Source of the DNA: Apostichopus japonicus
Taxonomy: Eukaryota; Echinodermata; Holothuroidea; Aspidochirotida; Stichopodidae
Length of the DNA: 64,000 bases
Assembly: GCF_037975245.1 (NCBI RefSeq)
Contig: NC_092577.1
Location: 36,138,898-36,202,897 of the forward strand
Direction of reading: 5' to 3'
The notes below the pieces were generated by a model. That model searched no databases and was not told the DNA's origin. It was given only the letters and a program-made list of their open reading frames with translations. Below, piece by piece: positions 18,825-61,360 of this stretch (positions are counted from its first letter, which is position 1; each line of letters starts with the position of its first letter). The translations under genes were made by a program, and so were the position numbers.

Positions 18825-20158
18825 TTAATTATCTATAGAACTAACTATACTTTCTAATACATGATAAAAATGTAAGGACAAACTTTCAAGTCTAGCTTAT
18901 TAGGATACGTAATTTCAATCATGTTTTAATCCATTTTTATGATATTATATTGTATTGTAGATTTTGTATGTTAAGAATATAGAACCAATTAGACTCCCAT
19001 GATTGAAAAGAAACATACATAAAATGTTTTTGTTTTCTGCGAATCGGAAAACACAATCAGCGTAGTGCAATCAAATTTAATATATGTTGTATTATAAGTA
19101 ATATACAATTCATGTTGTACATACTAAAACATTTGTTAAAGTTTCTACCTCAACGGCTAATATAAATACTTTTACTGTATGTATAAAGGAGCGTTTATAT
19201 TTTCAAAACTAAAAAACTACTATCTTACATAATAAAGGTATACATTATTTTCAAAATTAAAATTTATTTCTCTTAAAATTTTTAAATTTACAATTTTCTT
19301 CGAAATTGAAAAAGAAAAATTTGTTACTTATACCGCTGCGTGTTAATAACTATTTACGAAACAAAGTAAACTTTTCTAAACGAACATATATGTTTCTGAA
19401 GAAATTCATACATTAACTATTGTTTCCATGGTTTTGCCAAGTGCACGTCTCTTAAGAGAAACATTAACAGTTAGTTTCAGTTATCAAAATGTTTTAGGAA
19501 ATATAAGCTATATCAGTTGATGGATTTTGAATGTCAAAAATGCTTTAAGACGTACAAAGTTCACTCCTGGAGTTTTCTGCGAGACAAAAAGTCAAGAGGA
19601 AATTCCACGGGATTGCAAACAAGATCCATTGAACTTGTGTTCATATGAAAAGTTACATGAAAACATTAACAATATATCATATTTTAACAAAACAGTCTTG
19701 TGTTTGTAAATAGCTATCAGTCTATATTTAAATAATTGTTATTGATGTGCGAATTACAACTTGTTTTCATTAGTTTGACACAAGGATCATAAACTTTCGA
19801 AAATATTTTTGAAAATAAAGATGAACTTAGATGTCACTTCATAATGATAAGTTGTTACAAAATCGAAACTCACATCGAATAGTTAACCTGGAAAATAATA
19901 CAAGTACAAAGTGGTGTTAAAATTATTCGACCAACTATCTCCTTTATTGCTTTCTTCCTTTTTCACTTTTTTTGTCACATTTTGGAATATAATTCAAGTA
20001 AAGCTTAAAACGGTTAACGTAAACGATAGCTACAAGTAAATGGTGAATGTTATCAGATCTGTATAAAATGTGTACTTCGCGAAGTGTTATGTGCGTTCAT
20101 ATCATCTTGTGTAACTTACATATACGTGTACAGTCTTGTACTATAACCTATGCTGCTA

Positions 20159-23019: not shown

Positions 23020-23023
23020 CTTG

Positions 23024-23026
<3 letters not shown>

Positions 23027-23070
<44 letters not shown>
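23027..23070. repeat. (TA)n microsatellite
   Basis: About 44 bp of TA dinucleotide with one C interruption, just upstream of the pseudogene's large exon on the minus strand, within its presumed intron. Confidence 0.9.
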
Positions 23071-23353
23071 ACATTGACGGTCCTCCCATCATGGGTAACC
23101 CCATAAATCGTAATAGTAACAAGAATTTTCGGTTTAAAATATGAAAATCTGGTCCTGCAATTAGAGGCTTGTGTCAACATAAATTTAACATAACGAAAAA
23201 TGTGCTGCACGAGACGCTTTTACTCTCTTTACAATGGTAACAAAAAAAAACCTATTAACCAACAATGAAGAATGACTTATCTGTTAATAATACAATTTGC
23301 GTAACATTGTTCCTTCACATGCTTTTATACTACAGAGGATAAGAAAAATGTAC

Positions 23354-23475
23354 CTCGTCGATATTTTGCCGAGAGGTCTTGCTATAGTAACAGCGTCTTT
23401 CACATCATCTTCATCCGGGTTCTCTGTCTCGATTATGCTTTCGTTCCTCCTTGCTTTCTCTTCATACACGTCCTC
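23354..23475 (-). pseudogene. Single frameshifted copy of the 40-codon cassette exon
   Basis: Homologous to the ten cassettes at 52.4-57.5 kb, with the shared core ETENPDEDDVKD. It begins after an acceptor-like tttttaaag and ends at GAG before GTACAT, but is 122 nt long: an extra dinucleotide near 23386 shifts the second half to a different reading (AVTIARPLGK). It is the only copy in P1, so the tandem amplification happened in P2 or was lost here. Confidence 0.7.
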
Positions 23476-24785
23476 CTTTAAAAATCAACAAAGCAGGATG
23501 ACTCAAATAATTTCTTCTGAATTAAACTACCATATTAATCATCGCGTTTGAGCTGACGATAGCAATTGTTTTGCTTTTTTATTTAATTTATTAAACCGTT
23601 CGGAGGAAATAATTTTAAACTTAACAGGTAAACTTAGGCTAAGTTATAGTCTTGGTTTTGGGTTCATTTTGTGTGTTGACCTTGATGATTCCAACGTATC
23701 CGCCGAATTTTTGACAGTATAGGAAAAACTAACTACTAACTTTCTTATTTTCTTTCAGACCCACACATTAGGTCTCGCAGATCTAGTATAATACCCTAGG
23801 TTACAGTGCATCATTGTTTGTTGTCCTGTTAATGAGTCGGTCTTAACAGCGGTTTTGATCTTTAGTATTTTTGGAAGCTAAGTTGGAGAAAGTTTGCTAT
23901 AACTAATATTTTTACATTAGTTCTGATTTATCTGTGACAATGCGTTGTACTCATTAAATATGCTTAAATCGTCACATTTGTCTGGCACATTGGAAGGCAT
24001 CAGCATTTTTTTTTCCATTTGGAATATATTGCAGCTACTGGTATTTGAAATACATTTTTTAACTCTCATAAAGGAGATTAGTATAGTTGGAAGTAGATAA
24101 ACTGTGTGTGGCGAAGCGTAAAAAATTACAAAGTAATGTTACTGTTTCCTTTTGACAGCATGTTTTCTACTTTTACTACAAAACAGACTGAACTTTGTGG
24201 AGCATGTCTGGAGTCATATTGTATAAGAGTTGCTGCTTTGATTTTTATGGTAGCTTTATATTTGCACTTAACTTCTCCTCTTTTAGCAAAGAGGTCATAC
24301 CTTTAAATGGGGGGGGGGCCAAAAATCACTGAACATGGATAAAACTAAATAAATGTGCGCTTAGCGCACACCGCAAGCGCCTTGGCGCAAAGCCTTTGTC
24401 GAGAAGGGTTCATGGACCCGCCTAGAGCCCTAAATTGGTCATGGGGCGAAGCCCCGGCGGAGGCCATGGGCGGACTAAAATCTAGAAATCTTCAACTTCG
24501 TTTCTGTTTGGTCCCTGAATTGATATGACAGTCGTAAATAGATTTTACCAAAAGTCACATTTTACAAGTAATTAGACTTCAATTAAGAAAGGCCTATCTA
24601 TGTAACATCTGGTGAAACTGAAAGCCTTTATAATGATTAAGAAAATAAAAATTTAACCAAAACGGAAACATTCTTAAACTTTGCATGCAAGAGTAAAATA
24701 ATCTTGCTGTACGGATGTCTACAATAACAATCGGGTATCTGGGCACATTCACTTCATCGGAAACATAGAAACCTATAAATAAAGA
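23476..24785. other. Upstream flank of P1, shared with P2
   Basis: Matches 57560-58732, for example aatgagtcggtctta at 23832 and 57773, and tctagaaatcttcaact at 24481 and 58430. It contains a small GC-rich patch (24355-24475; gcgaagccccggcggaggcc). Short open frames (such as 24106-24306) have no support. It may contain the ancestral promoter of the GTPase gene, but no element could be assigned. Confidence 0.5.
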
Positions 24786-28099: not shown

Positions 28100-29350
28100 T
28101 ATACGAGGTGTGGGAGGGGGGTGGGGAGACACATATCACATGGCAAATCACTCTAACTTTAACTTTTCAGGCTGAAAAATGTATGAACCAGGACATTGTA
28201 CATTATTTCTTTTGCAGAATGACGTTTACTGTTGCTTGAAACGTCCATTTTTTTAATACATTTTGCTGTTGTATTCCTGATCAGTAACGGCATGCCTAAC
28301 CTAGCAGTTATACGTTAAGTAAGTGTTGATATCGACAATGTTCTAACATTGACTAGCCAACTGGGGTGTATAACTGTATTTCCTTCAATTCCTTGAATCG
28401 CTACTCTAAGGACGTTTGAACAGTGCCTATTTTGCTTATTCGAAGCGTCCAATAACATATGATTCTATTACTTACATTACACATTTTTTGACTCGATGTC
28501 CGCTTAACGTCATCTTAATAATAACATTAATGCCATCGTTGCTAAATTAGGTTAGCGTTGTTACCCGCACACTTGTCAATATACCTCAGTTTGAAAGTTT
28601 GCTTTCTCAGACATTTTGGCATCATCTTACCAACGGGTTTTGTACACAAAGGGGCTTGTTACCATATATTTGATCTGATCCGTTTTCTTCAAAATAGCTG
28701 AGGCAGATAGCTAGGATTGGTATCAAGCTTGCTGAGATACATTGTTTTCAACTTATTTTCATTCACCGGTGGGAATACCGTGCAATTATCCTTAGGTTTG
28801 TGAACGAACAGCTGAGGAGCACGTGCCAATCAGATTCGAGAAGTTTGAACAATTATGAATGAACAAAGAATAAGAATTGTCAGGCATTGATTCGTGCTGT
28901 CGTTTAGCTGTTTAACATTATGAATATTTGTGAATCTGATCGATTTGAAGAAGTAAATGTCAAACTTACCTGTGATGCTTTTATCGATGAGCGAGATCTT
29001 CCATTGCAGATACAGCCAGGATGTGAAAGCTTTGTGCAGTTGTCTGATTCGAACCGTCCAATGGCAAATTCTTCGGCAAGTGGATTCTTATATGAGGATG
29101 CTTATCTGTGGTATTTTAATTAGTTGCAGTGAGTTCCAATCAAATAGTCAGTTTCCTTCGTCAACGAAACTTAAACTGCATGAATATTCAGATGATATTA
29201 GCTATGGGAATAATATGTTTACTCAAACTAATATATACATAACCTTATAAGGATACCATTGCTGCTGCTGCTGGGTCCTACAAATGCTATCAGCAAATCA
29301 TATCCGTTGTTTATAGCCAGCAATAAAGTTCAGATAAACTAATATGTGCA
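28100..29350. repeat. Low-copy repeat R, copy 1
   Basis: Shares ordered blocks with copies at 29838, 31850 and 59540: a G-run before acacatatcacat, a block with gttgcttgaaacgtccat, a block with gaaagtttgctttctcag through ggtgggaataccgtgcaat, and a block from cagattcgagaagtttgaa to cagcaataaagttcagat. Compared with copy 4 it lacks the gtccac(a/g)gcgtttatcac block. No transposase or RT frame seen. Confidence 0.7.
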
Positions 29351-29837
29351 TAAAACCATATTGAACAGTTGTTTTATTTTCGGTTTGGTGCCCGGAGATG
29401 ACGTATTTGTAACAGCCAATCAGTGGGAACCAGGCTGATCGTCTGCCAGTGACAATTTTTTTTCCGTTGGACTTTGGATTGCTGGGCATGTAGGTAGGCT
29501 ACGTTTACACTTCTCTATTAAACTACTTATTAATTTGTAAATAATGAAATTGAAAATAGAACAGCTAATGATATCAAATCATTGTGTAATGGAATATGGA
29601 GCTAATTAATACCTTATTCTTGTATTTTGGTCCATGGTTGTGCCGAGGTTTGGTGCCTGGAATCTTTAGTGGGCAGGGAAGTCAAAAGTTTGTGGATCGC
29701 TGTTATAATGTATTTGTATTTATACAAAGTTATACTGCAAAGGGTTTCTTTTATGCAGTTATTTAATGCTGTTTATTACGTTCCGAATATTATTAATACT
29801 AATATGCTCATAAACACAAAATGCACTTAATAGTTAA

Positions 29838-43716: not shown

Positions 43717-46700
43717 CTATTTACTGGTCAGATGGTACTCCTCCCTTAAACTTTTTAGTGCATCTTGCTCTGAAACTGTACCCCATTCATTTGGGAGCTC
43801 TGCTGGCTTTAAACCGTACAACTTCGCAAAATCATTATTGAAAGTTTGCAATACCCACTTCCAGTACAGTATTGGAGTTTTCCCTGTAATTGGGGTAATG
43901 TCCCAAGAAGGATAATCCTCGGCATAGTCCTTGTAAGGTCTATACTCCTCTGGTGGCCCTATGCTGCATCGATATTTCGTGTCGGAGGCTACTAACATTG
44001 TGCATGGCTCTGATACCAGTTTAAGTGACCCTTTGTAATGACGTCCTGCTACACCCTGTGAGTAATGAAAGATAGCTTTGTGTGTATGTTCACCTCTGAT
44101 TTGCAAATGGCAGGGTACATTACAGAAAGGACAAACTTCCTTACACGTTCCTAAATGATCCAAGATATCAAATGCCACATCCCGCATTTTTGAGTAAAGC
44201 TGAGATGCTACTGACGGATCACTTAGTTTGTCTAAGTTCCATTGTTTAGTAATATCTCTTTTCAATTGCGAATTGAACATGCTGTCCAACATCTTGGTAA
44301 ATTCAGCAATGTCGCTTAGATTGAAATTCTCAACAGAAAACTTTATATCCATTCCATACTCTGTCATGTACTCGCTTTTCAGAAATGTATTTGCCCATTC
44401 CCGAAATGTTGTTGTTTGTTTACCTTCACGTTCCGTCAATTCATGTTTAGTCTTACGTAATGCAGATTGAACATAATCAAGTATTTCACTGATTTTTGTA
44501 TATATTACGTCTGTAACCCAATATTGAGACCGTGTTGTAATTTCAGTTAGAACCTTTTGGCTCAACCAATCGCTAACGAATGTATCATTGTCCTTTATAA
44601 AATCATGATACAATTTTGGCTCTTTCTTAAGACAGAGCTCTTCTAAAATTCTGCCAAGCATCCTCTGCTTATCATTATAGCAATCGTCTTTCCTCATTTG
44701 TTCTAAGAGTTTTACATTGAAGGCATTTAAAGTTACATTTCGCAAAACTGTCAAACACTCAGTATATGATCGCTTTACAGCCGCTCCACTCTTAATGGTT
44801 TCATCAACATAGCCTTTAAATTCGTCTTTTAAACATTCCTTCTCATTTTCAAACATTCTTTGCAATGAATTGTGACTTTCATACTGTCGTTGACAATCTT
44901 TGCAAACTGTACAAACCTCGTTCTGAACTTCACGAAGGTTACTAACCAAAGTTTCACTATTGACTTTGCTATCCGTTAATGCATTGTACACTTCTAGTAA
45001 AATAGTATCTACGCGACTTTCTTGAAACGGTATAACTTTCGCGTTATTTCTAAGATCCCTTCTATGATGATTTACAATTCCAAAAACTTCAATTTGAACT
45101 TTGTCCTTTAAGTCCTTAAATCTCAAAGTATTTATGCCAAACCAATGAGCAAAGTATTTCGGAATCCCAAATTTCGGCAAATGCATCTTCTCCCTCAATT
45201 TCTTGTCATCTTTCATCTCGTCAGTGTAAGCTTTGCTATATTCTGTACCAAGCATTAGTTTTCTAAGACTGTTATCACACGCCTGCTCGATATATCCCTC
45301 AGTAATTATAAATTTGTTGAAGTTTATTTCAAGCTGTTTGATTTTTTTATCCCAAAGTATGTCAAATTGTCTATCCAATTCCTCATGTTTGTCCTTCCAA
45401 TAGTCAGTGCCTTTTGTGTCCTTTAATTGCTTTGCGGTTTTTTTAGCCTCACATTTCAGTTCTTCTTTTGCCTCTCTGGTGAAATTTGGCAATCCTTTTA
45501 TATCGGCCTCATTTTGTAATTGTATCTCTTTTTTTTCTTTGATGCCTCTTTCAATATCTTTACCAATTCCGATTGTCTCATTTTTGATACTCTCTTGACG
45601 TCTTTTTACCTCCTCTTCGTCTGAATGCTCCTCTACGTATTTATCTATTTTCTTATTTACATTTTCGCATTTTTCAGTTATTTTAATCTCCAGCCTCGTG
45701 TAAAAACTTTTTCTTGTAGCATTCGTGACATTTCCACCATTGCTAAGTTCCCATTGAAATATCTCAGTTCTCATTTTTCCAATAAGTTTATTATGCTCTA
45801 GTCGGAATCTTTGGTTACTGAGGGCATCAAAACTATTTTGGAAATTAAAGACGAAGTCTTCTGATTTCACTGCATTCCATACATCCTTCAATCTTTGAAC
45901 AAATTTTGCCATTGTAAACTGACGTTGGATTACCGGTTGACTTGCTTTTGGTTTGAAAATGGCTTCCTTTAAAGCGTGAATTTTCTTACTTACCAGTGTA
46001 AACTGAGGAGAGATTACCGATTGATTTACTTTTGGTTTGAAAATGGCTTCCTTTAGGGCGTGAATTTTATCACTGTAGCCAGGATTTGGAGGAGACATTA
46101 AACCCATCCACAAGCATGGGAAAAACTGCAAGTCATCCTCTTCAGCTAGAGGAAATACATCTGAAAAATCTTGAATGTGTTCTACTCTTTCCTCAGCAGC
46201 AGCAATACGAGTGGCTTTGTTGAGAGCATCCTTTATTTTAGCCATGTTAGTTTTATTGTTAGCGGCAGCTGCTATGTCGCTCACTCTCTGCTGAATAATT
46301 CTGCAATTAGAAACCAAATCGACTTTCTTCATTCTTATCAAAGCATGGACAGCTATTTGCAATATGCCAATCATATCTGGGCCAATAGTTTCTTGACCGA
46401 TATTCAATAGGGTAAGGTCCCCTATGCACATGACAAGTGTCGCTATCGAATTATCAAATGTGTGGTCGTTGAGAACAGTTCGATCTGGAGAATGCAATCC
46501 TTCAGTATCAATAATCAGAAGATACTGAAAACCAAGTTGTTCATGAAATGCTTCGTTTACTTCTAACAATTGTAGGTATAACCCCCTTGTGCATCTACCA
46601 GCACGTACCGGAAACCTGACCCCAAACATACTATTTAAGAACGTTGACTTTCCACTACTCTGGATACCAATTATAGACAAAACAAATATTCGTGGGTTAT

Positions 46701-48603
46701 TAAGCGTTTTATCGAGATTCTTTAAGACGCCTGATATCCAATCAATGGGAATGTAAACAGTTTCCCCATCTAAAAGTTCCAATGGATATCCTGCAAGAAG
46801 TAATTTTGATGCCATGTTAACCAGCAATTTATTTCGTTCGTGAGCATTTGTATCTCCCAGGTTTGCTTCATACCATTGTCCTAACTCACGAATAAAGTGT
46901 TCGCAACTAATGTTTTTCGCATTAACTTGTTGGCTTTCTTTTAGGAGCTGCTTTTGCAAATCTTCTATTTCATTTTGCAGTTTCATGCGTTCACTGGGTG
47001 AAACGTGCTTCAGGTCAGACTTTCGTTTTTGCAGGTCAGTATTCAACTCGTGGATTCTCTTAAGTAATTGAGGAAATTCATTGGTGGTCATTTGTTCGAT
47101 ATGTGTTTGAAAAAAGGACATGAAATAATGCAAAAGATCATTTTCGTCAAGCATAACTGTTTTCAAGTTATTAAAAAAAACTTTCATTTTGGCAGATAAA
47201 CCCTTTTCTCTTTGCTTTTTCCTCATATCACGTTTAGTTTTATCCTTTGCTTCAAACTGATGATCGACAGTTTGTTCCCCACGACACAAACGTTTTCTAT
47301 CAGCTTCGACCCATTTACCCCATTCGACTTGCAATTGTAAATATGATTTTTTCACTTCCTCTATGGATTCAGTGTTCGGAAAGGTGGATTGCATCAGTTG
47401 TTTTGCTTTGTAATAGGAATCATATTCCTGATCCACGGTTACTTCATTAAAGCAAAACTTTTGCCAGTCTTCAATTGAATGGTAATCCTCACGCTTTGTG
47501 AAATTGCAGTATTGCATAATCTTCTCACAAATGATTTTTGCAAGGTCTGTTGCATTACGTTCCAAGCCAAAATCAATACTATCATCGTTTGCATCGATGT
47601 TTAGTGTATTACGCTCACTGTTGAGCTGTTGCTTACGTGTTTGCCTGCCCTTCTTTTTTTTTTGTACCATCAAATGTATCACGAAAACATTTTTGAATCT
47701 TTTCTTTATGTCATCAATTGCTGTCTTGTAGCATTCCAATTTGTCTTTATCTACAAAGAGGAATACAGCATTAGCTGCTTTGCACGTAAACTCACTTTCG
47801 GTAGTAAATTCTGTCGCATCACCTCTCAGATTCAACAATAACGTAACTTCTTTCAACAAATCCTCTTTTCTGCCGTACATTGGCAGATACCATTGGGCTT
47901 CTACTGATCCACAACAATGGAAAACGTTCTCTTTTTCATCATCATAAGACATAAAATATTGAAACGTTCCATTACCTTGAGCTCTACCAATGACATTATT
48001 TAATACGGACGATTTGGAGATTGGAATATCACCAAATCTTATGAATGCAGTGGTAAATACAGGCTCACTTACCATACGTTTCTCTGGAGCAAGAGATGTT
48101 TCATTTTCTTTCCATTTTTTTACAACACGACTTAATGCCCAAGTAAGCAGCTCTGGTTTCGCGGCATCTCTTACCCCAGGTAATAAGACTGGCACGGCAA
48201 GTTGACAAGATGCAAATTTCTCCAGCAAATGTTGTCTTAAATGATTATCGGAACAATGAAGAATTGCATATATGAAATCTCTTACACTACCTTCTATGTG
48301 AAGATTCTCTTTCCATGTAACCCTACTGTCTAGTGAGGTTAGCTTACTGATAAACAGAAAAGGTAAATCTTTTCTCTTCTCTTCTTTTTCCTCTTCTTTT
48401 TCCTCTTTTTCTTCCTTTTTTTCTTCCCCTTTTTCTTCCTCCTTTTTTCCCTCTTTTTTTGAATCGTCGCTTGGGATCAGCCGTACCTCTGTGGCCGCTT
48501 TCAGGGTGAGCTTCCGTAGGAAATAGTCCTTTAGACCAACCTCTTCCAAGTATTCCAGAAAATCTTCTTCAGTTTCTTTATCTATCGAATATAAGAGTAT
48601 ATA
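43717..48603 (-). CDS. Very large interferon-inducible-type GTPase (VLIG/GVINP1-like), main exon
   Basis: One open exon of 1629 codons. It starts with LLYSIDKE and VGLKDYF-RKLTL, the N-terminal segment usual before the VLIG body, then an E/K-rich stretch (48369-48470). The large G domain has a P-loop GIQSSGKSTFLN (near codon 640), CTRGLY as switch I, DTEGL as G3, then TLLNIGQE and ILQIAVHALIRMKKV. A long coiled-coil-rich helical part follows, and a C-terminal domain with CPFCNVPC, HYSQGVAGRH, PYKDYAEDYPSWDI and YWKWVL, as in other VLIGs. VLIGs are cytosolic GTPases linked to interferon responses in vertebrates and expanded in several invertebrates. The length is below the about 2400 residues of mammalian VLIG1. 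The first ATG-like start used by frame calling is TTG at 48547, so the true start lies in an upstream exon. Acceptor options are 48604-48605 (phase 0) or 48627-48628 (phase 1, but TGA at 48616-48618 follows). Confidence 0.93.
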   Translation of the reverse strand, partial: YILLYSIDKETEEDFLEYLEEVGLKDYFLRKLTLKAATEVRLIPSDDSKKEGKKEEEKGEEKKEEKEEKEEEKEEKRKDLPFLFISKLTSLDSRVTWKENLHIEGSVRDFIYAILHCSDNHLRQHLLEKFASCQLAVPVLLPGVRDAAKPELLTWALSRVVKKWKENETSLAPEKRMVSEPVFTTAFIRFGDIPISKSSVLNNVIGRAQGNGTFQYFMSYDDEKENVFHCCGSVEAQWYLPMYGRKEDLLKEVTLLLNLRGDATEFTTESEFTCKAANAVFLFVDKDKLECYKTAIDDIKKRFKNVFVIHLMVQKKKKGRQTRKQQLNSERNTLNIDANDDSIDFGLERNATDLAKIICEKIMQYCNFTKREDYHSIEDWQKFCFNEVTVDQEYDSYYKAKQLMQSTFPNTESIEEVKKSYLQLQVEWGKWVEADRKRLCRGEQTVDHQFEAKDKTKRDMRKKQREKGLSAKMKVFFNNLKTVMLDENDLLHYFMSFFQTHIEQMTTNEFPQLLKRIHELNTDLQKRKSDLKHVSPSERMKLQNEIEDLQKQLLKESQQVNAKNISCEHFIRELGQWYEANLGDTNAHERNKLLVNMASKLLLAGYPLELLDGETVYIPIDWISGVLKNLDKTLNNPRIFVLSIIGIQSSGKSTFLNSMFGVRFPVRAGRCTRGLYLQLLEVNEAFHEQLGFQYLLIIDTEGLHSPDRTVLNDHTFDNSIATLVMCIGDLTLLNIGQETIGPDMIGILQIAVHALIRMKKVDLVSNCRIIQQRVSDIAAAANNKTNMAKIKDALNKATRIAAAEERVEHIQDFSDVFPLAEEDDLQFFPCLWMGLMSPPNPGYSDKIHALKEAIFKPKVNQSVISPQFTLVSKKIHALKEAIFKPKASQPVIQRQFTMAKFVQRLKDVWNAVKSEDFVFNFQNSFDALSNQRFRLEHNKLIGKMRTEIFQWELSNGGNVTNATRKSFYTRLEIKITEKCENVNKKIDKYVEEHSDEEEVKRRQESIKNETIGIGKDIERGIKEKKEIQLQNEADIKGLPNFTREAKEELKCEAKKTAKQLKDTKGTDYWKDKHEELDRQFDILWDKKIKQLEINFNKFIITEGYIEQACDNSLRKLMLGTEYSKAYTDEMKDDKKLREKMHLPKFGIPKYFAHWFGINTLRFKDLKDKVQIEVFGIVNHHRRDLRNNAKVIPFQESRVDTILLEVYNALTDSKVNSETLVSNLREVQNEVCTVCKDCQRQYESHNSLQRMFENEKECLKDEFKGYVDETIKSGAAVKRSYTECLTVLRNVTLNAFNVKLLEQMRKDDCYNDKQRMLGRILEELCLKKEPKLYHDFIKDNDTFVSDWLSQKVLTEITTRSQYWVTDVIYTKISEILDYVQSALRKTKHELTEREGKQTTTFREWANTFLKSEYMTEYGMDIKFSVENFNLSDIAEFTKMLDSMFNSQLKRDITKQWNLDKLSDPSVASQLYSKMRDVAFDILDHLGTCKEVCPFCNVPCHLQIRGEHTHKAIFHYSQGVAGRHYKGSLKLVSEPCTMLVASDTKYRCSIGPPEEYRPYKDYAEDYPSWDITPITGKTPILYWKWVLQTFNNDFAKLYGLKPAELPNEWGTVSEQDALKSLREEYHLTSK
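45914..46081 (-). repeat. In-frame 84-bp duplication in the GTPase gene
   Basis: The segment starting gtaaactga at 45914 is repeated at 45998, period 84 bp. In the protein it is a 28-residue tandem repeat with core KIHALKEAIFKPK and QFT, just after the G domain. The two copies differ at several codons. The P1 pseudogene lacks this region because of its large deletion. Confidence 0.85.
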
Positions 48604-50619: not shown

Positions 50620-50671
50620 CGGGAGATTCTTGTTCTGACTCACTGGTGTTGTTCTCTGTATTGCCGGCCAT
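50620..50671 (-). CDS. Candidate small 5' exon (MAGNTENNTSESEQESP)
   Basis: A 52-nt segment starts with ATG at 50669-50671 right after a good acceptor (ttttcctctttaaccattcatatcag) shown here only by position 50672-50699, and ends at a GTAAGG donor (50614-50619) in phase 1. It encodes an acidic, Ser/Asn-rich 17-residue piece. Phase 1 fits the acceptor at 48627 of the large exon, as in the paralogue, and its phase-0 start fits the cassettes of the array upstream. It may be the start exon or an internal exon. Evidence is splice signals and phase only. Confidence 0.45.
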
Positions 50672-51989
50672 CTGATATGAATGGTTAAAGAGGAAAAAGC
50701 GTGTTCAAATGTTATTTACAACATGACGTTTCAATTACTCCCGAGACCATCATTGACTCCTAACCTTCGCATATAGTTAAAATAGTTTGACATCATGATC
50801 ATCAGTTGCATTTTATCCCAAAAATACTATGACGGATGTATGAAGAAACCTGTTTGTCGTGCAAATGTGTCTATATTGATATCAAATTTTAAGTTAGTTT
50901 AACATAACATTGTAGTAATTTATTGGTCGGCAAGTTTTTCTACAGATTATTACGGTACTCAACATAAAACTGGGATTGATTTTTCTCAACCTCACTGACT
51001 CCACTATGCCATAACGACATACATAACTAGATTACCTATTTAAATCTTACTCCAAATGGTGGCATAAAAGTCGAAAAATTTGCAACTTTCAACTTTTTTT
51101 TTCTCCAAGATATTTTCCGTTGGGATCCCAATAAACCTCGCCCATAATATGAATATTTAAACACTACGAACTTCATCGACCAATACGTAATACAACACCA
51201 TACTTGATTTGTGTACAGTCTATATGGCAGTTGTACCAGTGAGTTCCATAACAACTCCCTGGTTGTACTAACGCAAAGTCTTGAATCTATTTTTTAGCAA
51301 CGGCTCATAACTAAACCTGCATCTCTGATTGGTTGAATTCAAATTAGTGGGTTTGGGGGAACTGTATACGACTAATTTAAAATGTGGAATTTGTCGTGGA
51401 AACTTTTCTCATTATCTGCAAATATCCTTAATGACTCGCCAATTAACGATGTTGGCAGGGAAAAACTTGGCTAATATCTTAGTTTGCTGTTTTGTGATTG
51501 GTATATGTAAAAAACTCGATGGATATGTCAAAAACAAGTAGAAAATGCCGACCAAACGCAAAATGCTGCTTTAACACAATTGTTCCACAAAAGACAGCAT
51601 AACAAGAGAAACATTTTTGATAAGAGTGGTTTTCAATGAAACTGAAAAGCAATTCACCGTTTAATATATTAAAATCTATTCATGCATGTAAAAGATGGTG
51701 CAATGATCAATGGATCATTCTAGACAGCAAATGTTAAATTGGATATCTTTGTACAGTACTGTTTATAATGAAACTACGTGCAGCTATAACTATCTGAAAC
51801 AATCTTTCCAAGTCTCCAGTGAATACAATGTTGTGAGGAAGGAAAACCAACTGAACATAGTGATGTTACTCTCTTGACAATAGTAACACATAATGTTATC
51901 GTATATCGTAACCAACAATGAAGAATGACTTATCGATTGCAATACAATTTGTGTAAAATATTCTATTCACATGATTCTATTCAACAGTA
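50672..51989. other. Spacer between the small exon and the cassette array
   Basis: AT-rich; nothing recognised. The frame at 51036-51254 is unsupported. A long G run sits just outside at 50562-50577. Confidence 0.35.
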
Positions 51990-52006
51990 CATAATATTAA
52001 ATGTAC

Positions 52007-52126
52007 CTCATCGATATTTTGCTGGGAAGTCGTGCCAGTAGCAGCGTCTTACACGTCAGCTCATCTCTGTCTTCCTTATTCTTTCGTTTCGTTTTAATTA
52101 TATTAATCATTTTATTTGAAGTAACA
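52007..52126 (-). pseudogene. Degenerate cassette, unit 1
   Basis: The last part (TTSQQNIDE) and donor are preserved, but AAA before GAC is replaced by TAA, giving an in-frame stop, and the first half no longer matches the others. It is the unit nearest to the GTPase gene; the spacing of 351 bp to the next unit shows an internal deletion. Confidence 0.65.
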
Positions 52127-52357
52127 AGTTGAGGTATGGACTTGGTGTCGGGTTAATTATATATGGTGAACTTCATGATTTCAAAATAAACATCGAATGT
52201 ATGACAGTATCAGAAAAATCTATTTATGTATCTGTCTATTTATCAGGTAAAACGGACCCACACTTTAGTTATCGCAGAACTGGTTTAATACCCGAGGTTA
52301 TAGTGCACCATTGTTTTATTCACTTGATCCTATACTACCGAGGTAATAAAAATGTAC

Positions 52358-52477
52358 CTTATCGATATTTTGCTGGGAAGTCGTGCTAGTAGCAGTTTCT
52401 TTCACATCATCTTCATCCGGGTTCTCTGTTTCCATTATGGTTTCGTTTCTCCCTTCTTTCTTTCTATGTACGTCCTC
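52358..52477 (-). CDS. Cassette exon, unit 2
   Basis: Open 40 codons in phase 0 with core METENPDEDDVKETATSTT and end SQQNIDK. The codons after VK read E-T-A, where later units read D-A-A. First intact unit next to the degenerate one. Confidence 0.55.
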
Positions 52478-52910
52478 CTATAATAATCAACACAGCAGAA
52501 TGACTCAATTTAATTCTTCCGAAATGAACTCCCATATTAATTATATTAATCATTGCATTTGAACATATTAATCATTTGAACTGACAATATAAATGGTTTC
52601 GCTATCATTTTTATATCAGTTTATAAACCGTTTGAAGGAAATAATTTGAATTAACAAATAAAGTTAAAGTATATGGACTTAGTGTCGGGCCCAATTTTGC
52701 GTTGATCATAATAATTTGAAAATATACGCCAAAAGTAAGACGGTATCAAAAAAATATAAACTATAATGTATCTTTCTGTTTGTTTTTCTTTCTATCAGGA
52801 AAAAACGGACCCACGCTTTAATTATCGCAGAACTGGTTTAGTACCCGAGGTTATAGTGCACCATTGTTTTATTCACTTGATCCGATACTACCGAGGTAAT
52901 AAAAATGTAC

Positions 52911-53030
52911 CTTATCGATATTTTGCTGGGAAGTCGTGCTAGTAGCAGTTTCTTTCACATCATCTTCATCCGGGTTCTTTGTTTCCATTATGGTTTCGTT
53001 TCTCCCTTCTTTCTTTCTGTGTACGTCCTC
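52911..53030 (-). CDS. Cassette exon, unit 3
   Basis: Open 120-nt cassette with intact acceptor and donor. Private change: METKNPD instead of METENPD. Shares the VKETA variant with unit 2. Confidence 0.55.
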
Positions 53031-53458
53031 CTATAATAATCAACACAGCAGAATGACTCAAAATAATTCTTCCGAAATAAACTCCAATATTAATTATATT
53101 AATCATTGCATTTGAACATATTAATCATTTGAACTGACAATATTAATGGTTTCGCTATCATTTTTATATCAGTTTATAAACCATTTGAAGGAGACAATTG
53201 AAACAAGTAAAGTTAAAGTATATGGACTTAGTGTCGGGCCCAATTTTGTGTTGATCATAATGATTTGAAAATATACGCCAAAAGTATACGGTATAAAAAA
53301 AAATTATACTATAATGTATCTTTCTGTTTGTCTTTCTTTCTATCAGGAAAAAACGGACCCACGCTTTAATTATCGCAGAACTGGTTTAATACCCGAGGTT
53401 ATAGTGCACCATTGTTTTATTCACTTGATCCGATACTACCGAGGTAATAAAAATGTAC

Positions 53459-53578
53459 CTTATCGATATTTTGCTGGGAAGTCGTGCTAGTAGCAGTGTC
53501 TTTCACATCATCTTCATCCGGGTTCTCTGTTTCCATTATGGTTTCGTTTCTCTCTTCTTTCCTTCTATGTACGTCCTC
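53459..53578 (-). CDS. Cassette exon, unit 4
   Basis: Open 120-nt cassette. Private changes RRKEERNE (others RKKEGRNE) and VKDTA, intermediate between units 2-3 (VKETA) and units 5-11 (VKDAA). Confidence 0.55.
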
Positions 53579-54011
53579 CTATAATAATCAACACAGCAGA
53601 ATGACTCAAATTAATTCTTCCGAAATGAACTCCAATATTAATTATATTAATCATTGCATTTGAACATATTAATCATTTGAACTGACAATATAAATGGTTT
53701 CGCTATCATTTTTATATCAGTTTATAAACCGTTTGAAGGAAATAATTTGAATTAACAAGTAAAGTTAAAGTATATGAACTTAGTGTCGGGCCCAATTTTG
53801 CGTTGATCATAATGATTTGAAAATATACGCCCAAAGTAAGACGGTATCAAAAAAATATATACTATAATGTATCTTTCTGTTTGTTTTTCTTTCTATCAGG
53901 AAAAAACGGACCCACGCTTTAATTATCGCAGAACTGGTTTAATACCCGAGGTTATAGTGCACCATTGTTTTATTCACTTGATCCGATACTACCGAGGTAA
54001 TAAAAATGTAC

Positions 54012-54131
54012 CTTATCGATATTTTGCTGGGAAGTCGTGCTAGTAGCAGCGTCTTTCACATCATCTTCATCCGGGTTCTCTGTTTCCATTATGGTTTCGT
54101 TTCTCCCTTCTTTCTTTCTGTGTACGTCCTC
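54012..54131 (-). CDS. Cassette exon, unit 5
   Basis: Open 120-nt cassette matching the array consensus (RKKEGRNE, VKDAA), with CAC for His at codon 4. Confidence 0.55.
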
Positions 54132-54562
54132 CTATAATAATCAACACAGCAGAATGACTCAAAATAATTCTTCCGAAATGAACTCCAATATTTATTATAT
54201 TAATCACTGCATTTGAACATATTAATCATTTGAACTGACAATATAAATGGTTTCGCTATCATTTTTATATCAGTTTATAAACCATTTGAAGGAGACAATT
54301 GAAACAAGTAAAGTTAAAGTATATGGACTAAGTGTCGGGCCCAATTTTGTGTTGATCATAATGATTTGAAAATATACGCCAAAAGTATGACGGTATAAAA
54401 AAAAATTATACTATAATGTATCTTACTGTTTGTTTTTCTTTCTATCAGGAAAAAACGGACCCACGCTTTAATTATCGCAGAACTGGTTTAATACCCGAGG
54501 TTATAGTGCACCATTGTTTTATTCACAAGATCCTATATACTACAGAGGTAATAAAAATGTAC

Positions 54563-54682
54563 CTTATCGATATTTTGCTGGGAAGTCGTGCTAGTAGCAG
54601 CGTCTTTCACATCATCTTCATCCGGGTTCTCTGTTTCCATTATGGTTTCGTTTCTCCCTACTTTCTTTCTATGTACGTCCTC
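54563..54682 (-). CDS. Cassette exon, unit 6
   Basis: Open 120-nt cassette with RKKVGRNE in place of RKKEGRNE, a variant shared only with unit 9. Confidence 0.55.
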
Positions 54683-55115
54683 CTATAATAATCAACACAG
54701 CAGAATGACTCAAAATAATTCTTCCGAAATGAACTCCAATATTTATTATATTAATCACTGCATTTGAACATATTAATCATTTGAACTGACAATATAAATG
54801 GTTTCGCTATCATTTTTATATCAGTTTATAAACCGTTTGAAGGAAATAATTTGAATTAACAAGTAAAGTTAAAGTATATGGAGTTGGTGTCGGGCCCAAT
54901 TTTGTGTTGATCATATTGATTTGAAAATATACGCCCAAAGTAAGACGGTATCAAAAAAATATAAACTATAATGTATCTTTCTGTTTGTTTTTCTTTCTAT
55001 CAGGAAAAAACGGACCCACGCTTTAATTATCGCAGAACTGGTTTAATACCCGAGGTTATAGTGCACCATTGTTTTATTCACTTGATCCGATACTACAGAG
55101 GTAATAAAAATGTAC

Positions 55116-55235
55116 CTTATCGATATTTTGCTGGGAAGTCGTGCTAGTAGCAGCGTCTTTCACATCATCTTCATCCGGGTTCTCTGTTTCCATTATGGTT
55201 TCGTTTCTCCCTTCTTTCTTTCTGTGTACGTCCTC
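55116..55235 (-). CDS. Cassette exon, unit 7
   Basis: Open 120-nt cassette matching the array consensus; splice sites intact. Confidence 0.55.
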
Positions 55236-55670
55236 CTATAATAATCAACACAGCAGAATGACTCAAAATAATTCTTCCGAAATGAACTCCCATATTAATT
55301 ATATCAATCATTGCATTTGAACATATTAATCATTTGAACTGACAATATAAAAGGTTTCGCTATCATTTTTATATCAGTTTATAAACCGTTTGAAGGAAAT
55401 AATTTGAATTAACAAGTAAAGTTAAAGTATATGGACTAAGTGTCGGGCCCAATTTTGTGTTGATCATAATGATTTGAAAATTTACGCCAAAAGTATGACG
55501 GTATATAAAAAAAAATTATACTATAATGTATCTTACTGTTTGTTTTTCTTTCTATCAGGAAAAAACGGACCCACGCTTTAATTATCGCAGAACTGGTTTA
55601 ATACCCGAGGTTATAGTGCACCATTGTTTTATTCACTTGATCCGATACTACCGAGGTAATAAAAATGTAC

Positions 55671-55790
55671 CTTATCGATATTTTGCTGGGAAGTCGTGCT
55701 AGTAGCAGCGTCTTTCACATCATCTTCATCCGGGTTCTCTGTTTCCATTATGGTTTCGTTTCTCCCTTCTTTCTTTCTGTGTACGTCCTC
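55671..55790 (-). CDS. Cassette exon, unit 8
   Basis: Open 120-nt cassette, same predicted peptide as unit 7. Confidence 0.55.
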
Positions 55791-56223
55791 CTATAATAAT
55801 CAACACAGCAGAATGACTCAAAATAATTCTTCCGAAATGAACTCCAATATTTATTATATTAATCACTGCATTTGAACATATTAATCATTTGAACTGACAA
55901 TATAAATGGTTTCGCTATCATTTTTATATCAGTTTATAAACCGTTTGAAGGAAATAATTTGAATTAACAAGTAAAGTTAAAGTATATGGAATTGGTGTCG
56001 GGCCCAATTTTGTGTTGATCATATTGATTTGAAAATATACGCCCAAAGTAAGACGGTATCAAAAAAATATAAACTATAATGTATCTTTCTGTTTGTTTTT
56101 CTTTCTATCAGGAAAAAACGGACCCACGCTTTAATTATCGCAGAACTGGTTTAATACCCGAGGTTATAGTGCACCATTGTTTTATTCACTTGATCCGATA
56201 CTACAGAGGTAATAAAAATGTAC

Positions 56224-56343
56224 CTTATCGATATTTTGCTGGGAAGTCGTGCTAGTAGCAGCGTCTTTCACATCATCTTCATCCGGGTTCTCTGTTTCCA
56301 TTATGGTTTCGTTTCTCCCTACTTTCTTTCTATGTACGTCCTC
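56224..56343 (-). CDS. Cassette exon, unit 9
   Basis: Open 120-nt cassette with RKKVGRNE as in unit 6, three units (1661 bp) away. Confidence 0.55.
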
Positions 56344-56776
56344 CTATAATAATCAACACAGCAGAATGACTCAAAATAATTCTTCCGAAATGAACTCCAA
56401 TATTTATTATATTAATCACTGCATTTGAACATATTAATCATTTGAACTGACAATATAAATGGTTTCGCTATCATTTTTATATCAGTTTATAAACCGTTTG
56501 AAGGAAATAATTTGAATTAACAAGTAAAGTTAAAGTATATGGAGTTGGTGTCGGGCCCAATTTTGTGTTGATCATAATGATTTGAAAATATACGCCAAAA
56601 GTATGACGGTATCAAAAAAATATATACTATAATGTATCTTACTGTTTGTTTTTCTTTCTATCAGGAAAAAACGGACCCACGCTTTAAATATCGCAGAACT
56701 GGTTTAATACCCGAGGTTATAGTGCACCATTGTTTTATTCACTTGATCCTATACTACCGAGGTAATAAAAATGTAC

Positions 56777-56896
56777 CTTATCGATATTTTGCTGGGAAGT
56801 CGTGCTAGTAGCAGCGTCTTTCACATCATCTTCATCCGGGTTCTCTGTTTCCATTATGGTTTCGTTTCTCCCTTCTTTCTTTCTACATACGTCCTC
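56777..56896 (-). CDS. Cassette exon, unit 10
   Basis: Open 120-nt cassette with EDVCRKK (Cys for His) and acceptor ending atcatag. Both variants are shared with unit 11 only. Confidence 0.55.
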
Positions 56897-57330
56897 CTAT
56901 GATAATCAACACAGCAGAATAACTCATTATTAATTCTTCCGAAATGAACTCCCATATTAATTATATTAATCATTGCATTTGAACATATTAATCATTTGAA
57001 TTGACAATATAAATGGTTTCGCTATCATTTTTATATCAGTTTATAAACCGTTTGAAGGAAATAATTTGAATTAACAAGTAAAGTTAAAGTATATGGACTT
57101 AGTGTCGGGCCCAATTTTATGTTGATCATAATGATTTGAAAATATACGCCAAACGTATGACGGTATCAAAAAAATATATACTATAATGTATCTTTCTGTT
57201 TGTCTTTCTTTCTATCAGGAAAAACGAACCCACGCTTTAATTATCGCAGAACTGGTTTAATACCCGAGGTTATGGTGCACCATTGTTTTATTCACTTGAT
57301 CCTATACTACAGTGGATAATAAAAATGTAC

Positions 57331-57450
57331 CTTATCGATATTTTGCTGGGAAGTCGTGCTAGTAGCAGCGTCTTTCACATCATCTTCATCCGGGTTCTCT
57401 GTTTCCATTATGGTTTCGTTTCTCCCTTCTTTCTTTCTACATACGTCCTC
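57331..57450 (-). CDS. Cassette exon, unit 11 (5'-most in transcription)
   Basis: Open 120-nt cassette with EDVCRKK. Being 5'-most on the minus strand, it would be the first cassette met by transcription. The sequence beyond 57480 loses similarity to the array and returns to the P1-shared flank. Confidence 0.55.
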
Positions 57451-57560
57451 CTATGATAATCAACACAGCAGAATAACTCAAAATAATTCTTCCGAAATAA
57501 ACTCCAATATTAATTTTATCAATCATTGCAATTGAGCTGACAATAGCAATCGCTTCGCTT

Positions 57561-58732
57561 GTTTTAATAAAATTATAAATCGTTTGAAGGAAACCATTTG
57601 AATCAACAGGGAAAGTTGAGGTATAAACTTGGTGTGGGGTTCTTGTTATGTGTTGACTTTAATGGTTTTGAAAATATACGCCAAGAGTATGACAGTATAA
57701 GAAAAAAAACTGTTTTTTTCTCTTTCTTCCATTGAAGTAAAACGGACCCATCATCGTTCGTTATCCTGTTTAATGAGTCGGTCTTATAAAAGTGGTCTTG
57801 CTCTTCAGTATTTTTGGAAGCATTGTTGTAGAAATGTTGATGTAACTAAGACTTTTACATTATTTCTGTAGCAATGCGTTGTACTTATTAGATGCTAAAT
57901 ATGCTTAAATTTGTCACATTTGTCTGGCGTATTAGAAGGCATAAGTATTTTACTTCCATTTAAAATCTCTTCAACCTACTGGTGTTTGTACTACATGTTT
58001 TTACTCTCATAAAGTAGATTTGCGTCGTTGGAAGTAGACAAACTGTGTGTGGTGAAGCGTTAAATATTGCAAAGTAATGTTACTGTTTTCAATTGACAAT
58101 ATGTTTTCTACTTTTACTAGAAAAACAGACTGAGCATTGTGGAGTATATCTAGTGTCATAATGTGTGTGTTGCTTCTATATGGTGTTTTATCCAAAGTTA
58201 ACCTTTAACATTAAAAGTATTTGGATTGTCACAATTCTTCATAAACTTGAGTTTTAAGGGGCTCTATTGTTTTTAACAGGTATCTTTCCAACAGAAATCC
58301 GTTTTAAAAACGACTCAGCATGGATAAAACTAAAAGAGTGTTTTTTTCGGGTGGGGTCCAGGGTCCATCTTACGGCCCTTGATGGGGTCCAGGGGCAAAG
58401 CCCCAGCGGAGGCCATTGGGTGTACTCAAATCTAGAAATCTTCAACTTTACTTCTTTTTGGTAGCTAAAATTGATATTTCAACTGACAACTGATTAGTAA
58501 AAAACTTATCTGTTTACCATCCTGGTGTAACTTTGAGTCTTTATCATGATTAATAAAATTGAAGCTTAAACCCAAAACAGACACATTCTTAAACTCTGCA
58601 CACACGAATAAAGTCATCTTGTTATACATATGTTATACAAGCACATACATGGTGCCATAAGTAGAGTTAAAGAGTACTATTGGATATTTGAGCACATTCA
58701 CTTTATCGGAAACATAGAAACCTATAAAATAG
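57561..58732. other. Upstream flank of the array, shared with P1
   Basis: Matches 23560-24785. It would be expected to hold the promoter or first exons of a minus-strand transcript through the array, but no promoter element or start exon could be assigned. It contains a GC-rich patch (caaagccccagcggaggcc) at 58396. Confidence 0.45.
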
Positions 58733-59539: not shown

Positions 59540-61360
59540 TTATTTGACATTTAAGCAAAGACAAGTTTTTTAGTTCGTTCTTCTAATGTTGTTGTTTCAT
59601 GTTACTCTGTATAACTAACTGCTCTGATTATTCCTTAACTTGTAGAAGTTGTTGGGTGGGGAGGGGAGGGGGGGTGATCATATCACATAGCAAATCGCTC
59701 CTACCACTCTAACATTATACGATATCAATGGCTGGAGTTATATCTCTGCAAAGTTTGATTTACATCCACTGTGGATATGTTGAACATTAATATCATTTCT
59801 GAGATATTAGCTTGACATTTGTCGATGCAGAGATCACATGACAATGGTATTCGTTACATTGGCCAGCTAAGAATTAAGATGTAAAGGTTGCAAATTTTGA
59901 AAAACTTCCCTAGGTTCTATTATAAGAAATATAATAAGAATCGATTTCAAAGAGAATTCATTAACCTTCTTAGGTGAAATAACAGTCCACAGCGTTTATC
60001 ACTTGATAATGCAGGAAAAAGTATAACTCAAACAATACACGCGGCCGTAGGCCGAGTGCATCCAACGATAGGGATCGCCGTGGGTGCAATACGTTACGTT
60101 CATTGACTTTTACTACGGATACGTACTTAGTATAATACACTATACATACTACGCCAAGTTATATATTTACTTTCGTAAACACAATTCACCAAGAAAGTAA
60201 AAAGATTAGTTAACTTTTCTAGTACAATGGCTTCAATGACTTCAAGTTTGATCAGACGTTTATTGTTGCTTTGAAACGTCCACTTCTTGAATACATTTTG
60301 TATTCTTGATCATTAACAGCATGCATGGACCTAGCAGTTAGACGTTACGTAAGTGTTAATATCGACGTCACAGTGTTCTGACATTGGCTTGCCAAGAAAT
60401 ATAACTGTCATTCGTTGTTTCGATTCCTTCAATCGCTGCTCTTAGGATACTATTACTAACATTACGCATATTTGGCCTTGATGTCAGCTTAACGCAATAT
60501 TATTGATAACATTATAATGCCAGCTTTGCTAAATGAGGTTAGCGTTGTTGATCGCACCCTTGACAGTATACTTCAGGCTGAAAGTTTGCTTTCTCAGAAA
60601 GTTTGGCATCATCTTACCAAGTGGTGTTTACACAGAAGGGCTTCTTACAATACCATTTTGATCTGATTCGTTTGCTTCGAACTATAGCAAGGCAGATAGC
60701 TAGGATTGGTATCAAGCTTGCTGAGATACATTGTTTTCAACTTATTTTCATTCACCGGTGGGAATACCGTGCAATTATACTTATGTTTGTGAACGATCAG
60801 CTGAGGAGCACATGCCAATCAGATTCGAGAAGTTTGAACATGTATAAATGAGCAAGGAATAAGAATTGTCAGACATTGATTCGTGCTGTCGTTTAGCTGT
60901 TTAACATTATGAATATTTGTGAATGCTGATCGATGTGAAGAAGTAAATGTCAAACCTACCTGTAATGCTATTATCGATGAGCGAGATTTTCCATTGCAGA
61001 TACAGCCCGGATGTGAAAGCTGGAAATATGGCGTTGTCTGATTCGAATCGATTAATGGCAAATTCTTCGGCAATTAGATTCTTATATGAGGATGTTTATC
61101 TGTGGTATGTTAATTAGTTGCAGTGAGTTCCAATCAAATAGTCAGTTTCCTTCGTCAACGCAACTTAAACTGCATGAATATTCATATGTTATTAGATATG
61201 TGAATAATTTGTTTACTGAAACTGGTATACATAACCTTATTAGGATACCGTTGCTGCATTTGGGTCCGTCCTACAAATGCTATTAGCAAATCATATCCAT
61301 TGTTTGTAGCCAGCAATAAAGTTCAGATTACCTAATATGTGCATAAAATATGTCGCCGTT
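59540..61360. repeat. Low-copy repeat R, copy 4 (most complete)
   Basis: Holds all ordered blocks: ttgacatttaagca and the G-run before atatcacatag (59546-59700), gtccacagcgtttatcac (59991), gaaacgtccacttcttgaa (60272), gaaagtttgctttctcag (60580), ggtgggaataccgtgcaat (60757) and cagattcgagaagtttgaa to cagcaataaagttcagat (60820-61328). No protein-coding frame in common with the other copies was recognised. Confidence 0.7.

What the first reader, a model, noticed from the sequence alone, without database searches (positions are those of the whole stretch)
51990..57560. Tandem array of ten in-frame 40-codon cassette exons upstream of a VLIG-type GTPase
Seen: units of about 553 bp, ten carrying an open 120-nt minus-strand segment with acceptor and donor, all exactly 120 nt and phase 0-0, so any number can be included or skipped without shifting frame. 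The peptide is acidic and Ser/Thr/Asn-rich (core ETENPDEDDVKD). Units differ by a few coding changes (H/C at codon 4, E/V at codon 8, E/K, ETA/DTA/DAA). The paralogue has one broken copy. Inference: a recently amplified, copy-number-variable exon array that could diversify the N-terminus of an immune-type GTPase, or form a low-complexity repeat protein.
Basis: partly seen in the sequence, partly recalled or inferred. Interest (0 to 1): 0.88.

Follow-up and report, generated by a model that had tools for sequence, protein, structure and literature searches.

The report
Amplified start exon of immune GTPase
In what is probably an echinoderm genome, a small start-codon-bearing segment that sits in front of a family of large immune-type GTPase genes has been copied in tandem up to ten times, so neighbouring genes carry one to ten nearly identical copies; whether the copies are spliced into messages is still unknown.

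Summary
In detail: ten units spaced 548-555 bp, each with a 120-nt open minus-strand segment between AG and GT. The window's own genome (671.6 Mb; mitochondrial code suggests an echinoderm) allowed comparison. The segment lies upstream, same strand, of 16 of the 20 closest VLIG/URGCP-type GTPase genes: 10, 8, 3, 3 and 2 copies in five genes, one in ten, a remnant in one, none in four. So it is an old, gene-linked element.

Of 11 non-array loci, one keeps a multiple of 3. Among array units the 26 codons from an internal ATG to the donor vary less than intron (6/78 against 83/427, p=0.0098); the part before the ATG does not (8/42). Across eight C17 loci, however, that core diverges as fast as its flanks. 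Best reading: a start-codon exon, tandemly amplified by unequal exchange, joining in frame to exon 2 (50620-50671) and the GTPase exon. Splicing is inferred; no RNA was available. The copies are too alike for sequence diversification.

The parts
57331..57450 (-). copy 1 in transcription order (5'-most) of the 120-nt segment; ATG-to-donor part 57331-57408
56777..56896 (-). copy 2
56224..56343 (-). copy 3
55671..55790 (-). copy 4 (used as reference copy)
55116..55235 (-). copy 5
54563..54682 (-). copy 6
54012..54131 (-). copy 7
53459..53578 (-). copy 8
52911..53030 (-). copy 9
52358..52477 (-). copy 10 (3'-most intact copy)
51999..52090 (-). degenerate eleventh copy: ATG lost, deletion, in-frame stop; a matching piece also lies at the 3' end of the arrays at 36.27, 36.30 and 36.43 Mb
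57451..58060 (-). region upstream of the array, mean column conservation 0.86-0.98 across nine C17 loci; candidate promoter or 5' UTR (inferred). The upper limit is partly set by how much of four loci was fetched
50620..50671 (-). exon 2: CAG|ATG...CCCG|GTAAGG, MAGNTENNTSESEQESP, phase 0 to 1; found in 15 genes
43717..48581 (-). GTPase exon (acceptor TTCGATAG|AT, phase 1, to the stop codon); URGCP-like and URGCP_GTPase domains
23354..23475 (-). single broken copy in front of the decayed paralogue: 122 nt, 2-nt insertion, ATG to ATC; exon 2 absent there

Best explanation
The repeated segment is the 5' coding (start-codon) exon of a group of VLIG/URGCP-type GTPase genes, amplified in tandem with about 430 bp of flanking intron by unequal exchange. 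Each array copy carries a 5' UTR-like stretch behind an AG, an ATG in good context (Kozak rule, recalled), 26 codons of acidic Ser/Thr-rich leader, and a GT donor that leads in frame into exon 2 (MAGNTENN...) and then the GTPase exon. Shown: the array, the genome-wide linkage to these GTPases, the copy-number differences between genes, the frame match, and the lower variation of the ATG-to-donor part among array units. Inferred: that it is spliced and translated, that one copy per message supplies the start, and that copy number acts on dose or choice of start exon rather than on protein sequence. Messages that take several copies (adding 40 residues each) remain possible in array genes.
For: Linkage: 36 tblastn places and one DNA-only remnant fall into 16 loci; the nearest copy lies 0.4-4.9 kb upstream, same strand, of one of the 20 closest GTPase genes. 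Exon 2 sits between in 15 of these 16, and its AG-at-ATG acceptor and GTAAGG donor are kept in 15 of 15, so an exon upstream of it is likely. The AG before the segment is kept in 11 of 11 non-array loci and the GT after it in 10 of 11. In the 36.40 Mb gene only about 0.27 kb separates segment and exon 2. Codon content. Slower ATG-to-donor part in array units: 6/78 against 83/427, p=0.0098, with 8/42 before the ATG. Indels seen before the ATG are 19, 1, 1 and 2 nt, while in the core the one indel outside the decayed window paralogue and the ruined 36.36 remnant is 21 nt, in frame. ATG, open core and GT are kept in 26 of 26 array copies (25 checked by script, the 26th read out).
Against: No RNA. 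Donor (AAG|GTACAT) and acceptor rank only in the top 6% of all GT and AG on the strand, by a human-like matrix recalled from memory; the unit holds a better-scoring AG at 56104 and an equal GT at 56189. A better-scoring donor, AAG|GTTAG, lies about 0.1 kb before exon 2 in 12 of 15 genes and could be what exon 2 pairs with. ATG or frame is lost in 5 of 11 non-array loci, including one gene with a long GTPase frame (36.02 Mb, ATG to ATA). Four of the 20 closest genes have neither segment nor exon 2 by search. Across eight C17 loci the core diverges as fast as flanks (C4 loci, window paralogue and 36.36 left out of that mean). pN/pS of the core is 0.65, interval 0.35-1.37. One intron stretch is as invariant as the core (3/40). 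Within the window alone the core test is borderline (p=0.063). Array copies are not independent. No genomic copy with joined exons was found.
Confidence: 0.52

Rival explanations
1. In-frame cassette exons: several 40-codon copies joined per message, giving an N-terminal acidic repeat of variable length.
For: 120 nt and phase 0-0 in 25 of 26 array copies; an AG before every copy; codons 1-14 open in the ten window copies.
Against: A multiple of 3 is kept in 1 of 11 non-array loci. Codons 1-14 score no better than shuffles and vary like intron (8/42 against 83/427). One array copy (36.43 Mb) has 119 nt. No segment-segment junction in the genome (15 matches, all with 3 mismatches, against 18 for the control).
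Confidence: 0.15
2. Untranslated or regulatory: the copies are 5' UTR exons, or part of an upstream promoter region, with a short open frame that does not matter; exon 2's ATG is the real start, its acceptor pairing with the segment or with the AAG|GTTAG donor close by.
For: Exon 2's ATG is kept in 15 of 15 genes while the segment's ATG or frame is lost in 5 of 11 non-array loci. The core is no more conserved than flanks across eight C17 loci and the noncoding region upstream is as conserved or more. AAG|GTTAG in 12 of 15 genes.
Against: Codon content; lower variation of the ATG-to-donor part with an intron-like pre-ATG part among array units; the in-frame 21-nt deletion at 35.93 Mb.
Confidence: 0.22
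3. An unspliced local satellite: unequal exchange of upstream DNA that happens to contain a former exon, with no present role.
For: Units are shared between arrays and further multiplied inside genes (tree); weak splice sites; open-frame length is chance-like.
Against: Apart from a second, 3'-end piece in four arrays, the unit was found only in front of these genes (the search scores best candidates only); core variation is low among array units; splice dinucleotides are kept across loci.
Confidence: 0.11

Closest known systems
VLIG/GVIN and URGCP-type GTPase genes
   Same: Giant exon with URGCP-like and URGCP_GTPase domains; the N-terminus has 80 matches at about 65 places in this genome, fragments included.
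   Different: A tandemly amplified 5' exon-like segment. My recollection is that vertebrate VLIG coding sequence is in one exon; the one paper search on that gave no paper.
Arrays of alternative first exons (clustered protocadherins, UGT1A; recalled)
   Same: Tandem start-codon exons in equal phase upstream of constant exons.
   Different: Copies here are nearly identical and an AG precedes each; own promoters are not shown.
Tandem exon duplications with mutually exclusive use (Dscam type; recalled)
   Same: Tandem copies of one exon.
   Different: Near-identical copies, no evidence for exclusive choice; length a multiple of 3 in the arrays.
Coding VNTRs and repeat exons of symmetric phase (recalled)
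   Same: Copy number differs; equal unit length; phase 0-0 within the arrays.
   Different: Symmetry is not conserved in relatives, and the part before the ATG looks non-coding.

Membership tests
VLIG/URGCP-type GTPase gene (host gene of the array) | URGCP_GTPase and URGCP-like domains | tested here: met
   PF25683 E=1.7e-92, PF25496 E=1.8e-50, both above cut-off
VLIG/URGCP-type GTPase gene (host gene of the array) | immune-inducible expression | not testable with these tools
   no expression data
Alternative first-exon array | each copy has a start codon | tested here: met
   26 of 26 array copies
Alternative first-exon array | all donors in one phase that fits the constant exons | tested here: met
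   phase 0 into exon 2 (CAG|ATG), exon 2 phase 1 into the GTPase exon
Alternative first-exon array | own promoter per copy, no acceptor | tested here: inconclusive
   promoters not tested; an AG is kept before every copy
Alternative first-exon array | copies encode different N-termini | tested here: not met
   6 of 78 core sites vary over 21 units
Symmetric (phase 0-0) cassette or repeat exon | length a multiple of 3 in array copies | tested here: met
   25 of 26
Symmetric (phase 0-0) cassette or repeat exon | symmetry conserved among relatives and whole exon coding-like | tested here: not met
   1 of 11 non-array loci; codons 1-14 shuffle-like and intron-like
Symmetric (phase 0-0) cassette or repeat exon | copies joined to each other in mRNA | not testable with these tools
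   no RNA; no genomic junction above control
Mutually exclusive exon array | exactly one copy per message | not testable with these tools
   no RNA

The most novel reading that the evidence does not exclude
Within one clustered family of immune-type GTPases, the start exon is a copy-number-variable module (1 to 10 copies) that has even moved with its upstream region onto a diverged GTPase body (36.40 Mb), and copy number tunes how much GTPase message starts with the acidic leader, or how long that leader is, so that genes and perhaps individuals differ by array length.
Probability: 0.2. Interest if true: 0.62.

Novelty: new variant of a known kind. Interest (0 to 1): 0.42.

Why it matters
Arrays of tandem exons are usually discussed as sources of sequence diversity. 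Here the same exon-like segment is kept nearly unchanged while its number differs up to tenfold between neighbouring immune-type genes, which makes a simple test possible of whether exon copy number alone changes expression, start-site choice or N-terminal length. It also gives a natural series (1, 2, 3, 8, 10 copies) inside one genome.

Tried and rejected
Open-frame length as evidence for coding: rejected, chance-like. Relatives in viral and prokaryote collections: none confirmed. Rfam (gathering threshold) and tRNA scans of the window: nothing. Loose Pfam scan of the 40-residue peptide: nothing; a sub-threshold DUF5094 match of the joined 98-residue N-terminus (15.9 bits, cut-off 33.2) was ignored. 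Genomic copies carrying a segment-exon 2 or segment-segment junction: 6 matches against 2 for the control, and 15 against 18, all with three mismatches. Six of the 6 segment-exon 2 matches were looked at for wider similarity to segment, exon 2 and GTPase start and showed none beyond short or low-complexity words. Of the 15 segment-segment matches four were looked at in the same way, with the same result. Integrity of segment against GTPase frame of 1248 aa or more: 7 of 8 against 4 of 8, p=0.28; arrays against that frame length: 4 of 5 against 4 of 11, p=0.28 (frames, for the matched reading frame only; segments; tests). Conservation between window paralogue and array consensus (core 69/78 against intron 258/349, p=0.005) was my first support for coding; the comparison over eight C17 loci did not repeat it. 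Rows dropped before counts: the five 5'-most units, whose upstream flank is diverged; window paralogue, both C4 loci, 36.36 and a second window unit from the mean; window paralogue, 36.36 and all array genes but one from the core. Papers: seven searches, search listings with abstract starts only; no paper was opened. No listing described such an array, which is weak evidence of absence because most listings were off topic and long lists were cut.
Full report
Observation. The minus strand of 51990-57560 holds ten units spaced 548-555 bp, each with 120 nt open between AG|GAGGAC and GATAAG|GTACAT, plus an eleventh degenerate unit at 51999-52090. The nine full units differ pairwise by 0.5-5.5%. 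The open frame alone is not evidence: shuffled units hold frames as long. Codon content is: 14.1-15.8 bits against a maximum of 9.3 in 3472 open background windows. Against its own dinucleotide shuffles the reference copy is reached by 2.05%; the ATG-to-donor part by 1.15%, the part before the ATG by 33%.

Host gene. The large exon downstream carries URGCP-like and URGCP_GTPase domains. Between it and the array lies exon 2, 50620-50671, CAG|ATGGCC...CCCG|GTAAGG. Frames fit: segment phase 0, exon 2 phase 0 to 1, GTPase exon acceptor TTCGATAG|AT phase 1 at 48581. The alternative acceptor at 48603 scores poorly.

Genome context. The window lies at C17:36138898-36202897 of a 671.6-Mb assembly of 35 contigs. 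Its mitochondrial COX1 reads sensibly with AAA as Asn and AGA as Ser; that this is the echinoderm code, and which residues are expected, is recalled. The GTPase N-terminus has 80 matches at about 65 places. The 20 closest genes (70-100% identity) are 14 in the C17 35.9-36.5 Mb cluster, 2 on C4 and 4 at C17 34.2-34.3 Mb. The segment is found in front of the 14 and the 2 (36 places by tblastn; one remnant at 36.36 Mb by DNA). It was not found for the 4 at 34 Mb in the genome-wide search; about 0.65 kb in front of three of them was aligned only with the start of the GTPase exon, where they too have an AG before the conserved start. Copy numbers are 10 (window), 8 (36.30 Mb), 3 (36.40), 3 (36.43), 2 (36.27), 1 in ten loci and a remnant in one. 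Exon 2 has 15 places, lacking only in the decayed window paralogue among the 16. It has AG directly before its ATG in 15 of 15 and GTAAGG in 15 of 15, so an exon upstream of it is likely.

What is conserved. In the 11 non-array loci the AG is kept in 11 and the GT in 10. Segment lengths are 101 nt in five, 103, 119, 119, 122 and 99 nt, with 36.36 ruined, so one of 11 is a multiple of 3. Seven loci share a 19-nt gap before the ATG, and the two C4 loci lack 1 nt there. ATG with open core and GT remains in 6 of 11; it is lost by ATA (36.02), loss of ATG (36.47), a stop (36.52), a frameshift and ATC (window paralogue) and ruin (36.36). In the arrays 26 of 26 copies keep them and 25 of 26 are 120 nt. 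Over 21 full units of five genes, 6 of 78 core sites vary against 83 of 427 intron sites (p=0.0098) and 8 of 42 sites before the ATG; one 40-column intron stretch is as invariant as the core. Within the window alone the same contrast is 3/78 against 48/427 (p=0.063). Against a coding role, over eight C17 loci core, pre-ATG part and flanks diverge alike (0.118; 0.118; 0.109 upstream and 0.128 downstream). Uncorrected pN/pS of the core over ten loci is 0.65 (0.35-1.37), not different from exon 2 in 15 genes (0.84, 0.34-2.94) or 35 codons of the GTPase exon start in 15 genes (0.76, 0.40-1.45), so short length gives little power.

History. The unit tree mixes genes: the 36.19 and 36.30 units next to the 5' end pair, and the 3'-most units of 36.40 and 36.43 pair, while other units form gene-specific groups. 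The degenerate last unit has a counterpart in four arrays. So an ancestral array was inherited by several genes and then changed in number. Gene 36.40 has a diverged GTPase N-terminus (80%) and exon 2 (75%) but a 93-94% identical upstream region, as if 5' ends had been exchanged.

Mechanism. Most likely: transcription starts upstream of the array (a region conserved at 0.86-0.98 per column up to about 58.06 kb, beyond which several loci were not fetched), a segment supplies ATG and 26 acidic Ser/Thr-rich residues, and its donor joins exon 2 in frame. Where the segment is broken, exon 2's own ATG can serve. More copies then mean more chances to use this start exon, or a longer leader if several are joined. 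All splicing steps are inferred. The sites are only in the top 6% by a generic recalled matrix, and a better-scoring donor lies about 0.1 kb before exon 2 in 12 of 15 genes.

Verdict. A real, gene-linked, copy-number-variable exon-like array.

Noticed in passing
window 1-5430: A second tandem array with a period of about 650 bp (larger self-matches 91-98% alike) at the window's low end; the longest stop-free frames found inside it are 62-67 codons.
   Followed up: no
window 45909-46068: In-frame 84-bp (28-codon) direct duplication inside the GTPase exon, just after the GTPase domain.
   Followed up: no
window 48368-48460: 12-bp coding minisatellite giving a Glu/Lys-rich linker in the GTPase exon; missing in the window paralogue, and matches of several paralogues break at this linker.
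   Followed up: no
G000:C17:36394000-36399000: Gene with diverged GTPase and exon 2 but a nearly identical array and upstream region, suggesting exchange of 5' ends.
   Followed up: partly
window 18827-24237: Decayed GTPase paralogue with several breaks, lacking exon 2 and about 3.2 kb around it.
   Followed up: partly
window 50672-50750: Conserved noncoding stretch before exon 2 in 15 genes; words such as TTGTAAATAA are kept even in the diverged 36.40 gene. May be promoter or splicing signals.
   Followed up: no
window 28221-29355 and 60255-61348: 82% identical dispersed repeat, further partial copies at 30.4-32.7 kb.
   Followed up: no
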